Positions 13,445 to 21,523 of a DNA stretch of 40,409 nucleotides are shown here, in pieces. Location: positions 1 through 40,409 of the forward strand of contig JANWHY010000007.1 in NCBI GenBank assembly GCA_025450175.1. The letters run 5' to 3'. The position numbers were made by a program, and so were the translations under genes. The notes under the pieces are model-generated. The model saw only the letters and a program-made list of their open reading frames with translations, did not search any database and had not been told where the DNA came from. The stretch's first letter is position 1. The number at the start of each line of letters is the position of its first letter. Origin of the DNA: Minisyncoccota bacterium (GTDB taxonomy: Bacteria > Patescibacteriota > Minisyncoccia > Phycocordibacterales > Zambryskibacteraceae).

Positions 13445-14056
13445 GTGAATTCTATAGAAAAACTCGCTGAGCTTTTCGGCAAATTCCCTGGAATTGGCCC
13501 AAGACAAGCCAAGAGGTTTGTTTATTTTCTTCTTACGCGTCAGGGCACATATAACGAAGAGTTAATAAGGGCCATCGAGAACTTGAAGCAAGAGATAGTC
13601 CAGTGTGAAGAGTGTTTGAGATTTTACCCTTCGACAAGCTCAGGGCAAGTGCTCTGCTCTATCTGTAGTAACGATACTCGCGACTCTTCCCTACTCATGG
13701 TGGTGCCGAAGGATATAGATATGGAGTCGGTGGAGAAGAGTGGGAGTTACAACGGCTACTACTTTATCTTGGGAGGTGTGGTACCAATTTTAGAAAAAGA
13801 ACCAGAGAAGAGAGTCAGAATCACGAATCTAGAATCACGAATCAAGAAGGATAAAAATATAAAAGAAATAATTCTTGCTATGAATGCAAACCAAGAGGGA
13901 GAGAATACTATCGAATATTTGAAAACTAAACTTAGCAACTTAGCAACTTCCAAACTTACTATAACTATACTTGGCCGAGGTCTCTCTACCGGTGCCGAGC
14001 TCGAGTACGCTGATCCCGAGACTCTCAAGAATGCTTTGAAGAATAGGAGTAAGTGA
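13445..14056 (+). CDS. recR: Recombination protein RecR, with a repeat-derived insertion in the Cys4 zinc finger
   Basis: FGKFPGIGPRQAKRFVYFLL; CEECLRFYPSTSSGQVLCSIC; GRGLSTGAELEYADPETL. Confidence 0.92.
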   Translation: MNSIEKLAELFGKFPGIGPRQAKRFVYFLLTRQGTYNEELIRAIENLKQEIVQCEECLRFYPSTSSGQVLCSICSNDTRDSSLLMVVPKDIDMESVEKSGSYNGYYFILGGVVPILEKEPEKRVRITNLESRIKKDKNIKEIILAMNANQEGENTIEYLKTKLSNLATSKLTITILGRGLSTGAELEYADPETLKNALKNRSK

Positions 14057-14075
14057 CCTCTTTAATTATAGAAAA

Positions 14076-14156
14076 AGCGAATACATACTTCGTACTCGCT
14101 CCATACCGAACTGTAGCCCACGCTGCGCTAGCACACCATGCTGAACCCGACCGCAA
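14076..14156 (-). ncRNA. Array unit 1: pentamer-periodic guide-like RNA with 3' hairpin
   Basis: Hairpin 14076-14100 AGCGAATAC-atacttc-GTACTCGCT; then c + 11 pentamers CATAC CGAAC TGTAG CCCAC GCTGC... Confidence 0.8.
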
Positions 14157-14203
14157 CTAACCACAGATTTTATATCATACTTTCCAAGTAATCACAATAA
14201 AAA

Positions 14204-14289
14204 AGTGAGTACATATTTCGTACTCACTCCGAACCATAGCGCACGGTACGCTAGTTTACCACACCGCTCAGTACTGCACGGTGGACCAC
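14204..14289 (-). ncRNA. Array unit 2
   Basis: Hairpin 14204-14228 AGTGAGTAC-atatttc-GTACTCACT; CGAAC CATAG CGCAC GGTAC GCTAG TTTAC CACAC... Confidence 0.8.
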
Positions 14290-14324
14290 TTCTATCTATC
14301 TATAAATGCTTTTCAGAATGATGT

Positions 14325-14405
14325 GGTAGAAACATATTACGCCTCTACCCAATGCCGAACCGCGCTATACCTAACCTGAGGATGCGGAGCCCCAGGGTAC
14401 CGTAG
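14325..14405 (-). ncRNA. Array unit 3 (hairpin without U-tract)
   Basis: Hairpin 14325-14349 GGTAGAAAC-atattac-GCCTCTACC (two G.U on -); AATGC CGAAC CGCGC TATAC CTAAC CTGAG... Confidence 0.8.
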
Positions 14406-14459
14406 GACAAATTTTCCAATTAAATTTTTAACATAAATATCCACGTATTACAAACAAAA

Positions 14460-14545
14460 AGCGACCACATATTACGTGATCGCTCCACACCGGACCCTGC
14501 AATGGCGGAGCACGCTCTACCCAGCGCTACTTTGCGCCACCTAGC
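14460..14545 (-). ncRNA. Array unit 4
   Basis: Hairpin 14460-14484 AGCGACCAC-atattac-GTGATCGCT; CACAC CGGAC CCTGC AATGG CGGAG CACGC TCTAC... Confidence 0.8.
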
Positions 14546-14586
14546 CAGGATAATATAAGAATTCCGAAACAAAGAACTAATTAATT

Positions 14587-14667
14587 GGTGGACACATATT
14601 GCGTGCCCACCCCTTGCAGAACTGGACTCTGCGGTACGCAACCAGGCCGAAGCAAACCGAACAGTAC
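14587..14667 (-). ncRNA. Array unit 5, abutting the helicase stop codon
   Basis: Hairpin 14587-14611 GGTGGACAC-atattgc-GTGCCCACC; CTTGC AGAAC TGGAC TCTGC GGTAC GCAAC... Confidence 0.8.
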
Positions 14668-16524
14668 TTACTTCAGCATCTTCAAGGCATCATCGATGCA
14701 CTGCTCGAAGGTCAAGTCACCTCGGAAGGCTTTCCTCAACCATGCGGGCAACACATTCGGGATGAAGCGTCGATACTGCTGTGAGATGAAGATTGTCACC
14801 CCAACGCACTCGGCAGAACGAATGTTCCGACCGCGCACTTGAAGTGTCTTCAACATCTCGCGCCAGTTCCAGAGTGGCCAACGCCGATTGCCGAAGCGCC
14901 GCTCTTCGAATACTGTTGCTGGATCGTTCGGACTCGGATATCCAGGCCGCAAAGAGAAGATAACTGGAGCCATACCGTTAGGCAGGTCCAATCCTTCTCC
15001 GTAGTTGGCATCCGTACCGACCAGCACCATGCCTTCGCCAGCTTTGAACCTGGCAAGAGCATCTTTGGGTCGCACGCCATTCCCGTAGCTGATGACATCG
15101 ACGTTTTCTTCGTCTTTGCCACACAACCACACGAATTTCTCCTTCTCCTTGTTGGAGACCACCACGAAGAGGCAGTGGATTCCAGCTTGATTGAAGGTTC
15201 GGCATGCTTTCGCAACCATTCGCAGGGTTCGAGTTGGTTCTCGATGACTCCGTTCCTTCACTGCCAGATTCGGGGTGTCTAGTGGAAGATACACGCGAGT
15301 GTTCTTCACTGGAAACTCCGAGGACAATGCATAGAACGGAGACTTGATACCCGTCTCGAATCCGAACACGGTCGAGTCGCCGATCGTAGCCGAGTAGGCC
15401 AGAGTGTTTGGCGAAATGATCCGTTGAATGATCGGAGCGACGTAGTACGCCTTGATGGTGAGCGTGTGTTGCACTCGCTCATTCTCACCAAGGTCTTCTC
15501 TGTAGTACGCGTAGGTGTAGTTCAGCGCATGGCGCTTCTTGTCTGGGAGCGAATATTCGAGTGACAGGTAATACCTCACGAGGTTATAGGTCAGTGTCTC
15601 AACCTTTTTGAGCACTTCCCGTTTCTCTTTGGTATTGATCCGTCCATCCTTGATCGCTTCCTGGACCTTGGCGCGTAGCGACTTATACTCCAAACGCGTT
15701 GGCGTGAGCAGGTACATCAATTCCTCGACTTCGTGATCCTCGAGAAGCACTGCCATACGAGACGGCCGACGCTTCACGATCTTGATCATGGTGGCAAGAA
15801 ACTTCTCGAGCTGAAGAGCCGCTTCGGGAGCGATGTCCCTGAGGAATTCAATCGCTTTCTCGAGATGCCAGTCCGAGATGTCGTAGCTCAAGCAGTTGCG
15901 GATTGTCTCCGCAATGCCATGCGCTTCGTCAACTACAAGACCAGCCGGCTTGTCGAACTCTTTTGAGAAGAGTTGAGTGAAGAGGTAGAAGGCCGTGGTG
16001 CAAACCACAATCTTCCCGCCCTTTTTCGCCTCGTACTTCTGCCGCAGATACGGACAGGGTACCGCGCCTTCTGTGTGAGTTGTACCGGTTTCTTGATCCA
16101 CCCGATGTGGGCAATCAACCAGCATAGAACAAGGAATCTCATTGGCCTTGAGGTTATCGCGACTCTGTGCGAGCGAGACTAACTTCGTGGGCGTCAGATC
16201 CTTCTTCTCCTCGTAGTAGAGACACGGATGTTCTCCGCGCCCGTACGCGACTTGCGTATCCGGATGTAGAGAGTGAACTTGCTCAACAAGTGCCTTGGTA
16301 GGCGCAATGTAGAACAGGGGTCCTGCCGCACCTTGCCTCTCGATATCCTTGAGGAAGGTGTAACCGATAGCGGTTTTGCCCGTACCAGTTGGAAGCTCGA
16401 GGGTTACCCCAGAGCCTCCATTGCGCTCGATGATCTCGAACGCCGCATGCTGGTTTCCCTTAACCTCGTTGTAACGATCGTAAGGGAAGCTATCCAGCAA
16501 GCGCAGATGCTTCAGATGATTCAT
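14668..16524 (-). CDS. DinG/XPD-family SF2 helicase with predicted Fe-S cluster, embedded between RNA arrays
   Basis: Walker A LELPTGTGKTAIGYTF, VVDEAH box, Cys residues (HPC, IPC, VDC, VPC) between motifs I and II, QVRGRNIRS motif VI; SD AGGAGCGGAAAATG. Confidence 0.85.
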   Translation of the reverse strand: MNHLKHLRLLDSFPYDRYNEVKGNQHAAFEIIERNGGSGVTLELPTGTGKTAIGYTFLKDIERQGAAGPLFYIAPTKALVEQVHSLHPDTQVAYGRGEHPCLYYEEKKDLTPTKLVSLAQSRDNLKANEIPCSMLVDCPHRVDQETGTTHTEGAVPCPYLRQKYEAKKGGKIVVCTTAFYLFTQLFSKEFDKPAGLVVDEAHGIAETIRNCLSYDISDWHLEKAIEFLRDIAPEAALQLEKFLATMIKIVKRRPSRMAVLLEDHEVEELMYLLTPTRLEYKSLRAKVQEAIKDGRINTKEKREVLKKVETLTYNLVRYYLSLEYSLPDKKRHALNYTYAYYREDLGENERVQHTLTIKAYYVAPIIQRIISPNTLAYSATIGDSTVFGFETGIKSPFYALSSEFPVKNTRVYLPLDTPNLAVKERSHREPTRTLRMVAKACRTFNQAGIHCLFVVVSNKEKEKFVWLCGKDEENVDVISYGNGVRPKDALARFKAGEGMVLVGTDANYGEGLDLPNGMAPVIFSLRPGYPSPNDPATVFEERRFGNRRWPLWNWREMLKTLQVRGRNIRSAECVGVTIFISQQYRRFIPNVLPAWLRKAFRGDLTFEQCIDDALKMLK

Positions 16525-16566
16525 TTTCCGCTCCTATTGGGTCAGGTCGTTTCAAAGAGCCCGCCA

Positions 16567-16596
16567 ATCTATATCACATTTTTTAGACTTACGCAA
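16567..16596 (-). promoter_or_regulatory. Putative promoter of the helicase gene
   Basis: On -: TTGCGT-N17-TATAGA. Confidence 0.5.
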
Positions 16597-16606
16597 GGTA
16601 TATAAA

Positions 16607-16686
16607 AGCGGAGACATAATACGTCCCCGCTCAGCACCCGACATTACTGAAGTTTGCCAACATCACGGGTCATTACTCTACGTTAC
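16607..16686 (-). ncRNA. Array unit 6
   Basis: Hairpin 16607-16631 AGCGGAGAC-ataatac-GTCCCCGCT; AGCAC CCGAC ATTAC TGAAG TTTGC, one phase slip, then ATCAC GGGTC ATTAC TCTAC GTTAC. Confidence 0.75.
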
Positions 16687-16720
16687 TTAGAAAACCCTAT
16701 CATAAATAAAGTAAATTAAA

Positions 16721-16801
16721 AACGGACGCATATTGCGCGTCCGTTCCATGCGGAACCATAGAGAACCCTACGATACCCAACCAAGGCGAACCGGACCTTT
16801 G
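16721..16801 (-). ncRNA. Array unit 7
   Basis: Hairpin 16721-16745 AACGGACGC-atattgc-GCGTCCGTT; CATGC GGAAC CATAG AGAAC CCTAC GATAC CCAAC CAAGG CGAAC CGGAC CTTTG. Confidence 0.85.
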
Positions 16802-16837
16802 TCAGTTAGATTTTGATTACTAGGTGCGATAATACTC

Positions 16838-16923
16838 GGCGAAAATAAATTGCATTCTCGCCCCGTACTGAAGTCTGCATTAGCGTGCTGGACCGTGGCA
16901 TACGTTTCATAGCCCCGCTGCGT
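16838..16923 (-). ncRNA. Array unit 8 (hairpin without U-tract)
   Basis: Hairpin 16838-16862 GGCGAAAAT-aaattgc-ATTCTCGCC; CGTAC TGAAG TCTGC ATTAG CGTGC TGGAC CGTGG CATAC... Confidence 0.8.
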
Positions 16924-16969
16924 TTCCAAGAAAAGATTACTTTATCTTCTTAGTTTTTACAAATTAAAA

Positions 16970-17055
16970 AGCGAGAACATATTACGTTCTCGCTCCGCAC
17001 AATACTGTACCGTACCCTACCTGTGCCCACTTCACCGAACCAAACCTGACCGGAT
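16970..17055 (-). ncRNA. Array unit 9
   Basis: Hairpin 16970-16994 AGCGAGAAC-atattac-GTTCTCGCT; CGCAC AATAC TGTAC CGTAC CCTAC CTGTG CCCAC TTCAC CGAAC CAAAC CTGAC. Confidence 0.85.
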
Positions 17056-17088
17056 CGGTATCTCACATAATAGCGAGTAATAACTATT

Positions 17089-17164
17089 GGTGAATATATA
17101 GATCATATTCACCCCGTACCGGGCTCTGCCCTACGCTGCCCTAGCAAGGTGTACCTAAGCACGC
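17089..17164 (-). ncRNA. Array unit 10 (hairpin without U-tract)
   Basis: Hairpin 17089-17113 GGTGAATAT-atagatc-ATATTCACC; CGTAC CGGGC TCTGC CCTAC GCTGC CCTAG CAAGG TGTAC CTAAG CACGC. Confidence 0.85.
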
Positions 17165-17212
17165 AAAATCTTTTTCGATCCTATAACACAAATTAAAATA
17201 AAACAATTAAAA

Positions 17213-17298
17213 AGCGATCACATATTACGTGATCGCTCCGAAGGACAGCGTACCCTACCCAGCGGAACAGCTGGAAACCGGACTTCAGTAAACCGGAT
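17213..17298 (-). ncRNA. Array unit 11
   Basis: Hairpin 17213-17237 AGCGATCAC-atattac-GTGATCGCT; CGAAG GACAG CGTAC CCTAC CCAGC GGAAC AGCTG GAAAC CGGAC TTCAG TAAAC. Confidence 0.85.
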
Positions 17299-17327
17299 AT
17301 AAATATTATAACACAAGATATAGAAAA

Positions 17328-17418
17328 AGCTAGGATATAGTTCATCCTCGCTCATCGCACCACGTCACTCTACGCGACCATACGTCACCCGGCCATAGTC
17401 TACGAGACGAAACCGTGC
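17328..17418 (-). ncRNA. Array unit 12
   Basis: Hairpin 17328-17352 AGCTAGGAT-atagttc-ATCCTCGCT (one true mismatch); ATCGC ACCAC GTCAC TCTAC GCGAC CATAC GTCAC CCGGC CATAG TCTAC GAGAC GAAAC CGTGC. Confidence 0.85.
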
Positions 17419-17461
17419 AATATATATAATACAATAAATTTAAATGATTTGTAAATTAAAA

Positions 17462-17547
17462 AGCAGGAACATATTGCGTCCCTGCTCATCACTCCACATA
17501 GCCTTACCCGACCTTAGCGGACCTTACCAAGCGTTGCACTACCGGAA
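17462..17547 (-). ncRNA. Array unit 13
   Basis: Hairpin 17462-17486 AGCAGGAAC-atattgc-GTCCCTGCT; ATCAC TCCAC ATAGC CTTAC CCGAC CTTAG CGGAC CTTAC CAAGC GTTGC ACTAC. Confidence 0.85.
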
Positions 17548-17585
17548 CCTTTATACACCACAAACCTAACCTTTACAAATTAAAA

Positions 17586-17666
17586 AGCAGGGACATAATG
17601 CGTCCCTGCTCCGAAGATCACAACACGGCACCATAGCGAACAGTGGAAAACCCCACGTAGCCAAGG
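17586..17666 (-). ncRNA. Array unit 14
   Basis: Hairpin 17586-17610 AGCAGGGAC-ataatgc-GTCCCTGCT; CGAAG ATCAC AACAC GGCAC CATAG CGAAC AGTGG AAAAC CCCAC GTAGC CAAGG. Confidence 0.85.
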
Positions 17667-17700
17667 ATCAATGAATTAATGAGAGCCGCTTATATGAATT

Positions 17701-17796
17701 GGTAGAGATATATTCCATCTCTACCCCAAACCTAGCCCCAGCGCACAGAACCTGACGTGTCGCAGCCTTGCTCCACTTTACAGGACAGAACTCCAG
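17701..17796 (-). ncRNA. Array unit 15 (hairpin without U-tract)
   Basis: Hairpin 17701-17725 GGTAGAGAT-atattcc-ATCTCTACC; CAAAC CTAGC CCCAG CGCAC AGAAC CTGAC GTGTC GCAGC CTTGC TCCAC TTTAC AGGAC AGAAC TCCAG. Confidence 0.85.
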
Positions 17797-17834
17797 AAAG
17801 ATTAGAATAAATAGTAGTAATTTACAAATTAAAA

Positions 17835-17935
17835 AGCGAGAGCATAATGCGCTCTCGCTCCACACTCTGCGCCACGGCACTGGACCATAGCATAACGTAC
17901 TTTGCTCCGCACTGAGACGGCTAAGCATGCCCTAC
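17835..17935 (-). ncRNA. Array unit 16
   Basis: Hairpin 17835-17859 AGCGAGAGC-ataatgc-GCTCTCGCT; CACAC TCTGC GCCAC GGCAC TGGAC CATAG CATAA CGTAC TTTGC TCCGC... Confidence 0.85.
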
Positions 17936-17981
17936 CGCTTGGTTGAAGTTAGCACAAGTCTCAATAATTTACAAAATGAAA

Positions 17982-18062
17982 AACGAGCGCATATTACGCG
18001 CTCGTTCCATGCTCTACCTTAGCCTGCAGGACCATGGCACAGAGAACCCCGCTATGCAGGAT
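17982..18062 (-). ncRNA. Array unit 17
   Basis: Hairpin 17982-18006 AACGAGCGC-atattac-GCGCTCGTT; CATGC TCTAC CTTAG CCTGC AGGAC CATGG CACAG AGAAC CCCGC TATGC. Confidence 0.85.
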
Positions 18063-18094
18063 AGAATTAGTTATAAATACTTAGATTTTAATGT

Positions 18095-18175
18095 GGTAAG
18101 CATATAAATCATGCCCACCCCATGCAGGACCATACTTTGCTATGGCATGCCAAAGTGTGCTCCGCGACACCTAGC
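18095..18175 (-). ncRNA. Array unit 18 (hairpin without U-tract)
   Basis: Hairpin 18095-18119 GGTAAGCAT-ataaatc-ATGCCCACC; CATGC AGGAC CATAC TTTGC TATGG CATGC CAAAG TGTGC TCCGC GACAC CTAGC. Confidence 0.85.
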
Positions 18176-18186
18176 TATCCTTTATA

Positions 18187-18215
18187 ATTATACAATATAA
18201 AGGTATTTATTGCAA
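18187..18215 (-). promoter_or_regulatory. Putative promoter of array unit 18 (example of the recurrent inter-unit promoter)
   Basis: On -: TTGCAA-N17-TATAAT directly after the TTTTTAA tail of unit 19. Confidence 0.7.
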
Positions 18216-18221
18216 ATTAAA

Positions 18222-18302
18222 AACGGAGGCATATTACGCCTCCGCTCCGCACCCGACCCAACGTTACTGGGCAAAGCCTGACCACGCCGGTGAGGACGGC
18301 GC
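18222..18302 (-). ncRNA. Array unit 19
   Basis: Hairpin 18222-18246 AACGGAGGC-atattac-GCCTCCGCT; CGCAC CCGAC CCAAC GTTAC TGGGC AAAGC CTGAC CACGC... Confidence 0.8.
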
Positions 18303-18362
18303 CTGGTTTATATAGTTCCATTATTTATAATACAATAGATTTAAATAATTTGCAAATTAAAA

Positions 18363-18438
18363 AGCGAGTACATATTACGTACCCGCTCCGTACGATGCTA
18401 CACAGTACAGTGGAATACCTGACGTTGCCAGGCCGCGT
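18363..18438 (-). ncRNA. Array unit 20
   Basis: Hairpin 18363-18387 AGCGAGTAC-atattac-GTACCCGCT; CGTAC GATGC TACAC AGTAC AGTGG AATAC CTGAC GTTGC CAGGC. Confidence 0.8.
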
Positions 18439-18469
18439 GCGGAATTTTATGAGAGCATTTTAGTTAAAT

Positions 18470-18535
18470 GGCAGAAATATATAACATCTCTGCCCCAAAC
18501 GGTAGCGAACTGCACCTGACCCAGCCATGCCCTAC
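18470..18535 (-). ncRNA. Array unit 21 (hairpin without U-tract)
   Basis: Hairpin 18470-18494 GGCAGAAAT-atataac-ATCTCTGCC; CAAAC GGTAG CGAAC TGCAC CTGAC CCAGC CATGC CCTAC. Confidence 0.8.
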
Positions 18536-18583
18536 GCTTCTTTAAATATTATACAATGAATATTATTCAATTACAAATTAAAA

Positions 18584-18659
18584 AGCGGCCACATATTTCG
18601 TGGCCGCCCAGCACGACACTCTACTGCACCCGACGAGACCGAACAGCTCGGAACGCCGC
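18584..18659 (-). ncRNA. Array unit 22
   Basis: Hairpin 18584-18608 AGCGGCCAC-atatttc-GTGGCCGCC; AGCAC GACAC TCTAC TGCAC CCGAC GAGAC CGAAC AGCTC GGAAC. Confidence 0.8.
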
Positions 18660-18686
18660 CGCCAATCAAATTTCTCCATAAAGAAA

Positions 18687-18777
18687 GGCGGGGACAGATT
18701 TCGTCCCCGCCCCGTTCTGTACTCTGCAACACTGAAGCGCGCGGTAGGGAGCCGTAGCTCACTGGACCTCACGCTAC
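18687..18777 (-). ncRNA. Array unit 23, in the 3' UTR of the Cas7-like gene
   Basis: Hairpin 18687-18711 GGCGGGGAC-agatttc-GTCCCCGCC; CGTTC TGTAC TCTGC AACAC TGAAG CGCGC GGTAG GGAGC CGTAG CTCAC TGGAC CTCAC GCTAC. Confidence 0.8.
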
Positions 18778-18781
18778 TGCA

Positions 18782-19474
18782 TTACATGCGCTGTGCCGGC
18801 TCCTCGATCTGCGGAGCTTCGATATCGTCGTCCTCGGTTGCCTCGACGATCTGCCACTCCGCCACCCTGAACTGGCCAAATGGGCCGTTGGTGGATGGAC
18901 GGAAGTCGCCGATACCAGAGGTGCGACCGGACTTCTCGAAGACACGCTTGATCTTGTCTTCGGGAATCTCCGCCTTGTCGATGTCGACGGTGACCCACAA
19001 GGACCACTTGTCGAACCGCGGACGGATGACGGGCACCATTGCCTTCTTCGCCGAGTTGGATGCCTGGCCGCGGCGCCGATCGGGCACCCAGCACTTAGCT
19101 TCCTTGTAATGGGTTCCCGCCGGATCCTGCTGTTCGAAGGGCAGGAAGTCTTCGAGGATGGTCAACGCGCCAGTGAGGAGCGTCGAGTCCTTCGACGAGA
19201 TGCGCGTCATGCCCTCGAGCTTGACGCGGCGACCGCCGCCACGAAGCGATGCGAACAGGTTCTGCGCTGGGACACCGTACTCGCCGTTCGGGCCGCGGTA
19301 AATGCAGTACTCGTGACAGTACTGCCGATACCCCTTTCCCTTGTTGGACTTCGCGGTGAGTTCTCCCTCGTCCAGGATACCACCCTGGTTGACCCAGAGT
19401 GAGTCGAGCACCTCATCACCAGCCCTGTTTTGGAGCATGGGTGTGATGCCCTCGAGACGAATGCGAACGATCAT
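18782..19474 (-). CDS. Putative RAMP/Cas7-like RNA-binding protein
   Basis: MIVRIRLEGITPMLQNR N-terminal strand, Gly-rich SGRTSGIGDFRPSTNGPFGQFRVAEWQI near the C-terminus, adjacent to periodic RNA array; SD AAGGAG. Family call is by eye. Confidence 0.55.
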   Translation of the reverse strand: MIVRIRLEGITPMLQNRAGDEVLDSLWVNQGGILDEGELTAKSNKGKGYRQYCHEYCIYRGPNGEYGVPAQNLFASLRGGGRRVKLEGMTRISSKDSTLLTGALTILEDFLPFEQQDPAGTHYKEAKCWVPDRRRGQASNSAKKAMVPVIRPRFDKWSLWVTVDIDKAEIPEDKIKRVFEKSGRTSGIGDFRPSTNGPFGQFRVAEWQIVEATEDDDIEAPQIEEPAQRM

Positions 19475-20037: not shown

Positions 20038-20460
20038 TTATTTTATCGACTCGATCTTAACTTCGAAATAGGGTTGGCGGTGTCCGTACTTCTTAAAATA
20101 TCGTGACTTCTGCTTGTATTTGATAACGTCGACAGTCTTGTAACGACTAATTTTATTTAAAGTAGCTTTGACTTCCCCACCTTTGATATAAGGAGTGCCG
20201 AGAGTGATATCAGTAGCACCATCGTCCGTAAGAAGCACTTGGTCGAAAGTAATTTTATCCCCTTCCTTGTGGTCATCTCCTGCCAATTTCTCAATCTTGA
20301 CCTTATCCCCTACCTTCACGCGGTATTGCTTGCCTCCAGTAGTAAAGACGGCGAAAGTGGCCGAGCTTTTAGCTACGGACTTAGTGCTTTTAACTTCTGG
20401 CTCGGGAGCCTTGCTAATAGCCTTTTTTGGGCCTTTTTCTAATGTATTAGCTTCAACCAT
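20038..20460 (-). CDS. rplU: 50S ribosomal protein L21 with N-terminal extension
   Basis: FAVFTTGGKQYRVKVGDKVKIEKLAGD...KQKSRYFKKYGHRQPYFEVKI. Confidence 0.92.
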   Translation of the reverse strand: MVEANTLEKGPKKAISKAPEPEVKSTKSVAKSSATFAVFTTGGKQYRVKVGDKVKIEKLAGDDHKEGDKITFDQVLLTDDGATDITLGTPYIKGGEVKATLNKISRYKTVDVIKYKQKSRYFKKYGHRQPYFEVKIESIK

Positions 20461-20467
20461 AGGGGTC

Positions 20468-21523
20468 TTATTCTACTGAAGGACGCTCCAAAGTCAATGG
20501 TTCCATGCCTACGCCCGTGCCTGTAATCCTTAGCACATCCTTGTCTACCTTGCCGAGCTCTTTGTAGCCAGCATTATAGTGGTTCACTGTGGTAGAAAGG
20601 GCATTACCGAGCTTGGAGTAATACTCCTCATAAGTCTTGAGATGCCGACCGAGCTCCTCTACCCTCTTCGTAATCTCGACCGCCTTCTCCTCAATATGCA
20701 AGGCATTGAGACCTTGGAGGACTGTCTGGAGGTATGCGAGGAAGGATGTGGGTGAGACTATAAGCACATGATACTTCGAGGCGGCACGCTGGATGAGAGT
20801 CTCTGAATCTTCTTTGAGCGCGCCAATCTTGTTTACGATGAGATCGTAGTAAATAGCTTCGTGAGGGATGAACATGAAGGCGAAGTCCATAGTTCCCTCC
20901 CCGGGCTGAATATATTTAGAAGTCTCGGTGATACGGTTCTTGAGGTCATTGATGAAAGACTTTTCTAAACGTTCTTTTTCTAGAGGGTCCTTCTCTTCGA
21001 CTAGGCGATTGTAGTTCTCGAGAGAGAACTTGGAGTCTATTGGTATGACTTTATCCTTCACGAAGACGGCCGCATCGACGATTGTCCCGTCTGGGAAGGG
21101 GTACTGCATCTGGTAAGAGCCAGGGGGTAAAACATTTTTCAAAAGAGTTTCGAGATAGTACTCGCCGAGGACCCCACGCTGTTTAGGATTCTTCAAGATG
21201 TCTTGAAGAGATTGGAGTTGGTCGGCGAAGGAGACTACTTGCCTGTTGGTCTCGTCGAGTTTGGTAAGACCCTGAGTAACTTCCTTAATAAGCTTGGCTG
21301 ACTCGCCGAACTGGGCTCGTACAGACTCGTTCATCATCTTGTTAGACTCGCTCATCTTCTGATCCACTGTGCGAGAGAACTCGTGGAGTTGAGTAAGAAG
21401 GAGTTTGATCCCCTCTTCGCCCTTCTCATCCTTCTTGTCCCCCATCTTCTTAGAGAGGATAAAAAGTGTCACTGCATTTCCAATAACTAAGAGTATTATC
21501 GCAACTAGAATTAGGGTACTCAT
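20468..21523 (-). CDS. rmuC: DNA recombination protein RmuC
   Basis: KQRGVLGEYYLETLLKNVLPPGSYQMQYPFPDGTIVDAAVFVKDKVIPIDSKF. Confidence 0.9.
   Translation of the reverse strand: MSTLILVAIILLVIGNAVTLFILSKKMGDKKDEKGEEGIKLLLTQLHEFSRTVDQKMSESNKMMNESVRAQFGESAKLIKEVTQGLTKLDETNRQVVSFADQLQSLQDILKNPKQRGVLGEYYLETLLKNVLPPGSYQMQYPFPDGTIVDAAVFVKDKVIPIDSKFSLENYNRLVEEKDPLEKERLEKSFINDLKNRITETSKYIQPGEGTMDFAFMFIPHEAIYYDLIVNKIGALKEDSETLIQRAASKYHVLIVSPTSFLAYLQTVLQGLNALHIEEKAVEITKRVEELGRHLKTYEEYYSKLGNALSTTVNHYNAGYKELGKVDKDVLRITGTGVGMEPLTLERPSVE

What the first reader, a model, noticed from the sequence alone, without database searches (positions are those of the whole stretch)
14076..18777. 23-unit array of RNAs with strict 5-nt periodicity: NNN[A/G][C/G] on +, 5'-[G/C][U/C]NNN in the minus-strand RNA
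After each hairpin and exactly one nucleotide, the sequence parses into pentamers whose last two bases are nearly fixed (AC most often, also GC, AG, GG) and whose first three vary. Unit 7: CATGC GGAAC CATAG AGAAC CCTAC GATAC CCAAC CAAGG CGAAC CGGAC CTTTG. Unit 12: ATCGC ACCAC GTCAC TCTAC GCGAC CATAC GTCAC CCGGC CATAG TCTAC GAGAC GAAAC CGTGC. The same phase holds in all 23 units, with about 8-15 pentamers each; unit 6 shows one slip. It is not codon periodicity. The trinucleotides differ between units, so this looks like stored information read as 3-on/2-off. By analogy, Cas7-bound crRNA has a 6-nt repeat with one flipped base. I infer non-contiguous guide RNAs in which each protein subunit grips two fixed bases and presents three for pairing.
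Basis: partly seen in the sequence, partly recalled or inferred. Interest (0 to 1): 0.98.

Follow-up and report, generated by a model that had tools for sequence, protein, structure and literature searches.

The report
VIPR-type gapped guide-RNA array with helicase
A tiny bacterium of the candidate phyla radiation (CPR) carries in its chromosome 23 short guide RNAs that store address information in pairs of letters between spacer letters, next to a small CRISPR-like protein and a helicase; it belongs to the VIPR systems first described in a 2026 preprint, and its letter code can be partly read from related genomes.

Summary
In detail: 23 hairpin-anchored units with a strict 5-nt period (174 of 184 pentamers in phase; shuffles 65.8 ± 6.0). 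The RNA is the minus strand: a repeat tract followed by a covarying 3' hairpin, which at most units is followed by a U-run. These are non-contiguous guide RNAs beside a RAMP (Cas7-like) protein: the array lies around vipr (18782-19474) and a DinG-type helicase (14668-16524). All 27 aligned family members hit phrog_4652, and the family profile hits the solved SUSP1 Vipr protein at E = 2e-12. So this is a VIPR system (Doudna preprint, 2026). The "3-on/2-off" code is not supported. Across 28 homologous CPR loci the repeat is G-Y-N1-N2-N3, with N3 far freer than in phage VIPRs (G 34% versus 80% in SUSP1). But where guides from different loci share an address (0/100 shuffles as good), N1N2 agree at 57/62 bases and N3 at only 11/31. 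Thus two bases are read and three are not. Sequence statistics favour a 3-nt target step (VIPR's 1-nt skip) and reject the other periods that could be tested. No natural target was found. Most likely it is a host-encoded, helicase-armed VIPR used against mobile elements.

The parts
18782..19474 (-). vipr gene, 230 aa RAMP/Cas7-like protein with G-loop (GIGDFRPSTNGPFGQF)
   Evidence: 27-member profile hits PDB 36pp SUSP1 Vipr E 2.3e-12; all 27 members hit phrog_4652; AlphaFold model pLDDT 77.8, best Foldseek hits Csm3/Cas7 chains, E 2.7e-6, prob 1.0
14668..16524 (-). DinG/XPD-type helicase, 618 aa (putative vap); Walker A K50, DEAH 199-202, conserved C101/C138/C157
   Evidence: PADLOC typeIV_DinG E 5.2e-38; Pfam Helicase_C_2, DEAD, DEAD_2; motif residues kept in 28 of 29 homologues; a Vipr gene lies near the helicase in all 28 fetched relatives
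14072..14166 (-). vrRNA unit 1 (tail hairpin 14072-14101, tract 14102-14166)
14200..14289 (-). vrRNA unit 2 (tract 14230-14289)
   Evidence: shares 14 of 16 N1N2 bases with a guide in L053, not significant alone (8/100 shuffles)
14321..14405 (-). vrRNA unit 3 (tract 14351-14405)
14456..14545 (-). vrRNA unit 4 (tract 14486-14545)
14583..14667 (-). vrRNA unit 5 (tract 14613-14667), begins at the 3' end of the helicase gene; no obvious promoter
16603..16686 (-). vrRNA unit 6 (tract from 16633; 4-nt slip at 16658-16661)
16717..16796 (-). vrRNA unit 7 (tract 16747-16796)
16834..16918 (-). vrRNA unit 8 (tract 16864-16918)
16966..17050 (-). vrRNA unit 9 (tract 16996-17050)
17085..17164 (-). vrRNA unit 10 (tract 17115-17164)
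17209..17293 (-). vrRNA unit 11 (tract 17239-17293); TATAAT 11 nt upstream
17324..17418 (-). vrRNA unit 12 (tract 17354-17418)
17458..17542 (-). vrRNA unit 13 (tract 17488-17542)
17582..17666 (-). vrRNA unit 14 (tract 17612-17666)
17697..17796 (-). vrRNA unit 15 (tract 17727-17796)
17831..17935 (-). vrRNA unit 16 (tract 17861-17935)
17978..18057 (-). vrRNA unit 17 (tract 18008-18057)
18091..18175 (-). vrRNA unit 18 (tract 18121-18175); promoter-like TTTGCA-18-TATAAT at 18216-18187
18218..18302 (-). vrRNA unit 19 (tract 18248-18302)
18359..18433 (-). vrRNA unit 20 (tract 18389-18433)
18466..18535 (-). vrRNA unit 21 (tract 18496-18535); promoter-like TTGTAA-17-TATAAT at 18576-18548
18580..18659 (-). 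vrRNA unit 22 (tract 18610-18659)
18683..18777 (-). vrRNA unit 23 (tract 18713-18777), starts just after the vipr stop codon; possibly co-transcribed with vipr

Best explanation
A host-chromosomal VIPR system of a CPR (Patescibacteria) bacterium. Twenty-three minus-strand vrRNAs, each about 8-15 pentamers of (G)-G/C-Y-N1-N2 followed by a 3' hairpin, are coated by copies of one small RAMP protein (Vipr). The fixed GY (and often the preceding G) is the protein-held scaffold. The N1N2 pairs of successive repeats together form a gapped address that pairs with a target, most likely double-stranded DNA with a 1-nt skip (xNN). The DinG-type helicase is the accessory (vap) effector: recruited to the bound target, it would unwind DNA and silence or destabilise mobile elements, much as DinG does in type IV-A CRISPR. 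Shown here: the periodicity, the RNA strand and tail structure, Vipr homology, the conserved vipr-array-helicase association, and N1N2 as the conserved address with N3 outside it. Supported by statistics only: the 3-nt target step. Inferred: coating of the RNA by Vipr, DNA as target, anti-mobile-element function, helicase role.
For: Period and phase; covarying tail on the minus strand followed by U-runs. Vipr profile to SUSP1 Vipr E 2.3e-12 as the only PDB sequence hit, phrog_4652 in 27/27, Cas7/Csm3 fold. A helicase-alignment search gave 28 further loci, all with a Vipr gene nearby and 27 with detected pentamer arrays. The published SUSP1 VIPR locus, fetched and scanned with the same detector, shows the same kind of repeats. 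Guides from different loci share N1N2 runs but not N3. Two-base reading at period 3 is not rejected, while periods 2, 4 and 5 and all three-base readings at periods 3-5 are (period 6 has no power). N1N2 composition fits antisense codon positions 2,1 best, placing the skip at the wobble base. Literature: PMC13142463.
Against: The repeat consensus departs from GGY/NN: the first G is only 50% here and 34% across the clade. No natural target was found in the own genome, about 40 regions around phage-terminase hits from CPR genomes, four viral-contig seed scans of window guides, or about 370 genomes for two shared addresses. The codon-composition signal is modest and the period test assumes coding targets. 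The N3 result rests on three pairs of guides, none of them from the window.
Confidence: 0.92

Rival explanations
1. A three-base code (3-on/2-off): N1N2N3 of each pentamer all pair with the target.
For: N3 entropy is as high as N1 and N2 across the clade (1.96 bits). A weak codon-like association of N3 with the next N1N2 (z 3.3, about 30% of the effect expected if N3 were fully faithful).
Against: In guides sharing an address N3 matches 11/31 while N1N2 match 57/62. Order tests reject NNN at periods 3, 4, 5 (z -5.3, -6.7, -5.0). In SUSP1 the same position is G in 80%.
Confidence: 0.05
2. Same guide RNP, but the target is mRNA (antisense silencing), with the helicase acting on RNA or DNA during transcription.
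For: The N1N2 composition looks predominantly antisense to genes (antisense 2,1 weight 0.62-0.72, window 0.84-0.97); closest fold matches are RNA-targeting Csm3 chains.
Against: Published VIPR binds dsDNA and targets either strand (PMC13142463). The partner is an XPD/DinG-type DNA helicase. The fold similarity is shared by Cas7-like proteins in general. The composition signal is modest.
Confidence: 0.12
3. Ordinary structured regulatory RNAs or a decayed tandem repeat, not guides.
For: Every unit has a conserved, terminator-like hairpin; no target was found.
Against: The period is held by 2-3 positions while the others are near maximum entropy, and variable positions recur between loci with the register intact. 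Association with Vipr holds in all 28 relatives.
Confidence: 0.02
4. A derived type IV CRISPR-Cas locus (RAMP + DinG) whose array has degenerated.
For: The helicase is closest to the type IV DinG model (PADLOC typeIV_DinG E 5e-38).
Against: No csf1, csf3, csf5/cas6 or cas1/cas2 found among the neighbouring genes scanned; no identical direct repeats (tails vary by compensatory change); the only PDB sequence hit is Vipr, not Csf2/Cas7.
Confidence: 0.04

Closest known systems
VIPR systems (Viral Interference Programmable Repeat; Escherichia phage SUSP1, type II; PMC13142463)
   Same: Small single RAMP protein; vrRNAs of 9-16 tandem pentamers then a structured 3' tail; conserved GY/variable NN; a separate accessory gene (the preprint gives helicases or nucleases for types III-V); two bases read per repeat.
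   Different: Found here on a CPR chromosome rather than in a phage; 23 vrRNAs (about 40 in L051) instead of 4; the first G of GGY is largely lost (50% here, 34% in the clade, 80% in SUSP1); stem-variable hairpin tails, most followed by a U-run; DinG-type helicase partner. The preprint mentions 'a related consensus' for some types in a supplement that could not be read, so this may already be one of its seven types.
Type IV-A CRISPR-Cas (Csf proteins + DinG)
   Same: RAMP-coated guide RNA plus a DinG helicase; no nuclease evident.
   Different: One RAMP instead of Csf1-3/5, no CRISPR repeats, gapped instead of contiguous guide.
Class 1 Cas7 backbones (Csm3, Cmr4)
   Same: Fold (Foldseek E 2.7e-6, prob 1.0) and the principle of periodically flipped guide bases.
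   Different: Period 6 with one flipped base (general knowledge) against period 5 with two of five bases read.
TIGR-Tas (PMC12045711)
   Same: Compact RNA-guided system with tandem guide arrays in phages and parasitic bacteria (abstract).
   Different: Its protein family and array design are different; it was found from a Cas9 RNA-interaction domain, not a RAMP.

Membership tests
VIPR | Vipr-family RAMP protein | tested here: met
   Profile A4 vs 36pp SUSP1 Vipr E 2.3e-12 over positions 14-204; phrog_4652 in 27/27 members
VIPR | vrRNA made of about 9-16 tandem pentanucleotides | tested here: met
   8-15 per unit in the window; clade median 12
VIPR | Alternating GGY/NN or a related consensus | tested here: met
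   Related consensus: G 79% / Y 96% / N N, with the preceding G 49%; strict GGY is not kept in this clade
VIPR | Structured 3' tail after the repeat tract | tested here: met
   9-bp hairpin with double changes at all 9 pairs, 99.5% paired
VIPR | Minimal locus, typically vipr plus one accessory (vap) gene | tested here: met
   Helicase only; conserved in 28 relatives
VIPR | NN dinucleotides carry the target address | tested here: met
   Three inter-locus guide pairs of the same clade: NN 57/62 identical, N3 11/31; 0/100 shuffles reach their scores
VIPR | dsDNA recognition with a 1-nt skip | tested here: inconclusive
   Period 3 two-base reading not rejected, periods 2, 4, 5 rejected, period 6 without power; no target found; dsDNA binding not testable here
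Type IV CRISPR-Cas | csf genes and a CRISPR array of direct repeats | tested here: not met
   None found among the neighbouring ORFs scanned; tails are not identical repeats
Type IV CRISPR-Cas | DinG-family helicase | tested here: met
   typeIV_DinG E 5.2e-38
TIGR-Tas | Nop-domain Tas protein | tested here: not met
   No Nop-family match for either protein in Pfam

The most novel reading that the evidence does not exclude
A CPR-specific, host-immune VIPR lineage in which the repeat has relaxed to G-Y-N-N-N (one scaffold G no longer needed), large arrays of separately transcribed guides have accumulated, and a DinG helicase replaces nucleases: a living intermediate between phage-warfare VIPR and type IV-like CRISPR immunity. 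It could even still keep weak reading of the wobble base.
Probability: 0.35. Interest if true: 0.8.

Novelty: new member of a known kind. Interest (0 to 1): 0.64.

Why it matters
VIPR is proposed as the ancestor of CRISPR RAMP systems, yet the described cases are mostly viral. Here is a chromosomal version with 23 guides and the helicase used by type IV CRISPR, in bacteria that often lack CRISPR (general knowledge). Related loci carry guides with the same address but different scaffold bases, which allowed the code to be tested by evolution alone: two bases are read and the third variable base is not. That gives a direct, cheap experiment on the VIPR code and on how viral RAMPs became host immunity.

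Tried and rejected
Single-sequence AlphaFold of Vipr failed (pLDDT 33); it succeeded with 27 relatives (77.8). Pattern searches for close Vipr or helicase relatives in viral contigs gave none. Target search in the own genome, CPR chromosomal loci and regions around phage-terminase hits from CPR genomes under 8 reading rules: no score above shuffled guides. Four viral-contig scans with 16-base seeds from units 12, 4, 23 and 9: 45 hits, no extension beyond chance. Addresses shared by guide pairs: the L044/L058 core hit two viral contigs exactly, one of them (L160) antisense and in frame inside a capsid-like protein by eye, but about 1.5 hits are expected by chance and the flanks do not extend, so not claimed. 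Class-wide genome searches gave none and one probably chance hit. Codon-stop depletion under contiguous NNN reading: no clear signal. The window unit 2 / L053 shared address is not significant alone (8/100 shuffles).
Full report
What is there. The window is a whole contig (C7, 40,409 bases) of a 442-kb genome. Its genes (gyrB, pheS, rpsB, RF-1, PBP, mraZ/mraW, rplU, recR, dnaB) are cellular. Between recR (13445-14056) and rplU/rmuC (20041-21523) lie, on the minus strand: a 230-aa gene (18782-19474), 18 repeat units, a 618-aa helicase gene (14668-16524), and 5 more units.

Periodicity. Parsing from each hairpin gives 23 tracts. In the first 8 pentamers of every unit 174/184 fit NNN[AG][CG], against 65.8 ± 6.0 in dinucleotide shuffles, z = 18. 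Lag-5, -10, -15 and -20 autocorrelation is raised and lag-3 and lag-6 is not. In RNA (minus) orientation the pentamer is G/C 98%, Y 96%, N1, N2, then N3 with G 49%. Rotated, this is (G)GYNN: the VIPR repeat with a relaxed first G.

RNA strand and units. On the minus strand each tract is followed by a 9-bp hairpin with a 7-nt loop, and in most units by a U-run. All nine pairs show double changes, 99.5% of cells pair, and sliding the helix by 1-3 columns drops this to 33-52%. Terminator-like sites are four-fold over shuffles (20 against 5.0, mostly minus-strand unit tails) and promoter-like sites are more than two-fold over (17 against 7.2, on both strands). Some units (11, 18, 21) have a perfect TATAAT 11-12 nt before the tract. 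Units 23 and 5 follow directly on the vipr and helicase genes and may be co-transcribed. About seven units have tails without a U-run (3, 5, 8, 10, 15, 18, 21).

Proteins. The 230-aa protein has no significant Pfam or NCBIfam assignment and one credible PDB hit, 36pp 'SUSP1 Vipr protein' (E 0.002). With an alignment of 27 relatives this rises to E 2.3e-12 over nearly the whole protein, and all 27 match phrog_4652. The AlphaFold model from that alignment (pLDDT 77.8) matches Csm3/Cas7 chains best (E 2.7e-6, prob 1.0). The helicase is DinG/XPD-like with Walker A, DEAH and three conserved cysteines (28/29 for C101, C138 and C157), and is closest to the type IV CRISPR DinG model. No nuclease domain was found.

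Relatives. A helicase-alignment search of 85,462 species genomes gave 28 loci, nearly all titled as CPR phyla (one is labelled Aenigmatarchaeota, several only 'bacterium'). All 28 carry a Vipr gene near the helicase, and 27 have detected arrays; counting major-strand units of six or more pentamers, the loci including the window have 1 to 40 vrRNAs each, 273 in all. No relative was found in viral contigs with the pattern searches tried. No close homologue of this Vipr was found in 16 same-genus genomes; one (G012) has a distant Vipr elsewhere. In those genomes recR and rmuC lie roughly 0.3-2.6 kb apart where both fall on one contig, against 6.4 kb here, which suggests acquisition of the locus. 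Two more distant Vipr loci in this class (L016, L017) have nearly canonical GTNNG repeats (N3 = G in 90-95%).

What is read. Comparing guides does not. Three pairs from different loci share an address well beyond 100 shuffles (scores 7.33, 6.62, 6.53; shuffle maximum 6.18). In these N1N2 agree at 22/24, 17/18 and 18/20 bases and N3 at 4/12, 4/9 and 3/10; two of the pairs are offset by 2 or 3 whole pentamers. The L037/L055 pair comes from one genome bin and keeps S and Y as well (11/12, 12/12), as expected for common descent, yet N3 has drifted. A search for pairs sharing N2N3 or N3 gives nothing above control. N3 is therefore outside the address.

How far apart on the target. If guides copy coding DNA, the order of repeats should score better than shuffled order under the right step. 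For two-base (N1N2) reading the expected gain is absent at steps 2, 4 and 5 (z = -6.6, -3.5, -5.3 against expectation), while step 3 is not rejected (the test has little power there) and step 6 is untestable; three-base reading is rejected at steps 3, 4 and 5. N1N2 composition fits complement-of-codon positions 2,1 best (weight 0.62-0.72; window 0.84-0.97), which puts the skipped base at the wobble position, as reported for SUSP1 (PMC13142463). N3 shows a faint association with the codon it would complete (z 3.3, about 30% of full), perhaps a trace of how guides were copied. These are statistical hints, not proof.

Mechanism, with status. Shown: minus-strand tract-plus-hairpin units, Vipr homology, conserved array-helicase linkage, two-base address. 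Inferred: Vipr subunits coat the RNA, one per pentamer, holding GY and presenting N1N2; the complex binds DNA at xNN targets; the helicase then acts on the bound DNA, silencing or destabilising a mobile element. The host chromosomal setting and large variable arrays suggest host defence, but no target was found, so the enemy is unknown. How guides are gained is also unknown: no cas1-like gene was found in the scanned neighbourhood.

Verdict. The strange array is real and its general idea (gapped guide) is right. It is a member of the VIPR systems described in April 2026, with a relaxed repeat and a helicase partner in CPR bacteria. It may fall within one of the seven published types; the relevant supplement could not be read.

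Noticed in passing
L044:834-1300: Two neighbouring vrRNAs in one array share 10 pentamers almost completely (offset 2), a recent in-array duplication with shift.
   Followed up: partly
L043, L045, L047, L051: Four loci carry two Vipr genes each; L051 also has the largest array seen (about 40 vrRNAs).
   Followed up: no
L016:10131-10255 and L017:1422-2762: Other CPR genomes of this class carry Vipr genes with nearly canonical GTNNG repeats, and no helicase of this family was found beside them: a second VIPR type in CPR.
   Followed up: partly
L048:7033 and L053:3575: Two guides look like reverse complements in register (16/20 bases, score 5.5 vs one control at 4.5), as if both strands of one target were hit.
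   Followed up: no
L160:6425-6450: Shared address of L044/L058 guides matches a viral contig exactly, antisense and in frame, in a gene that looks like a capsid protein by eye; could be chance.
   Followed up: partly
window units 3, 5, 8, 10, 15, 18, 21: These tails lack the U-run after the hairpin; possibly processed rather than terminated.
   Followed up: no
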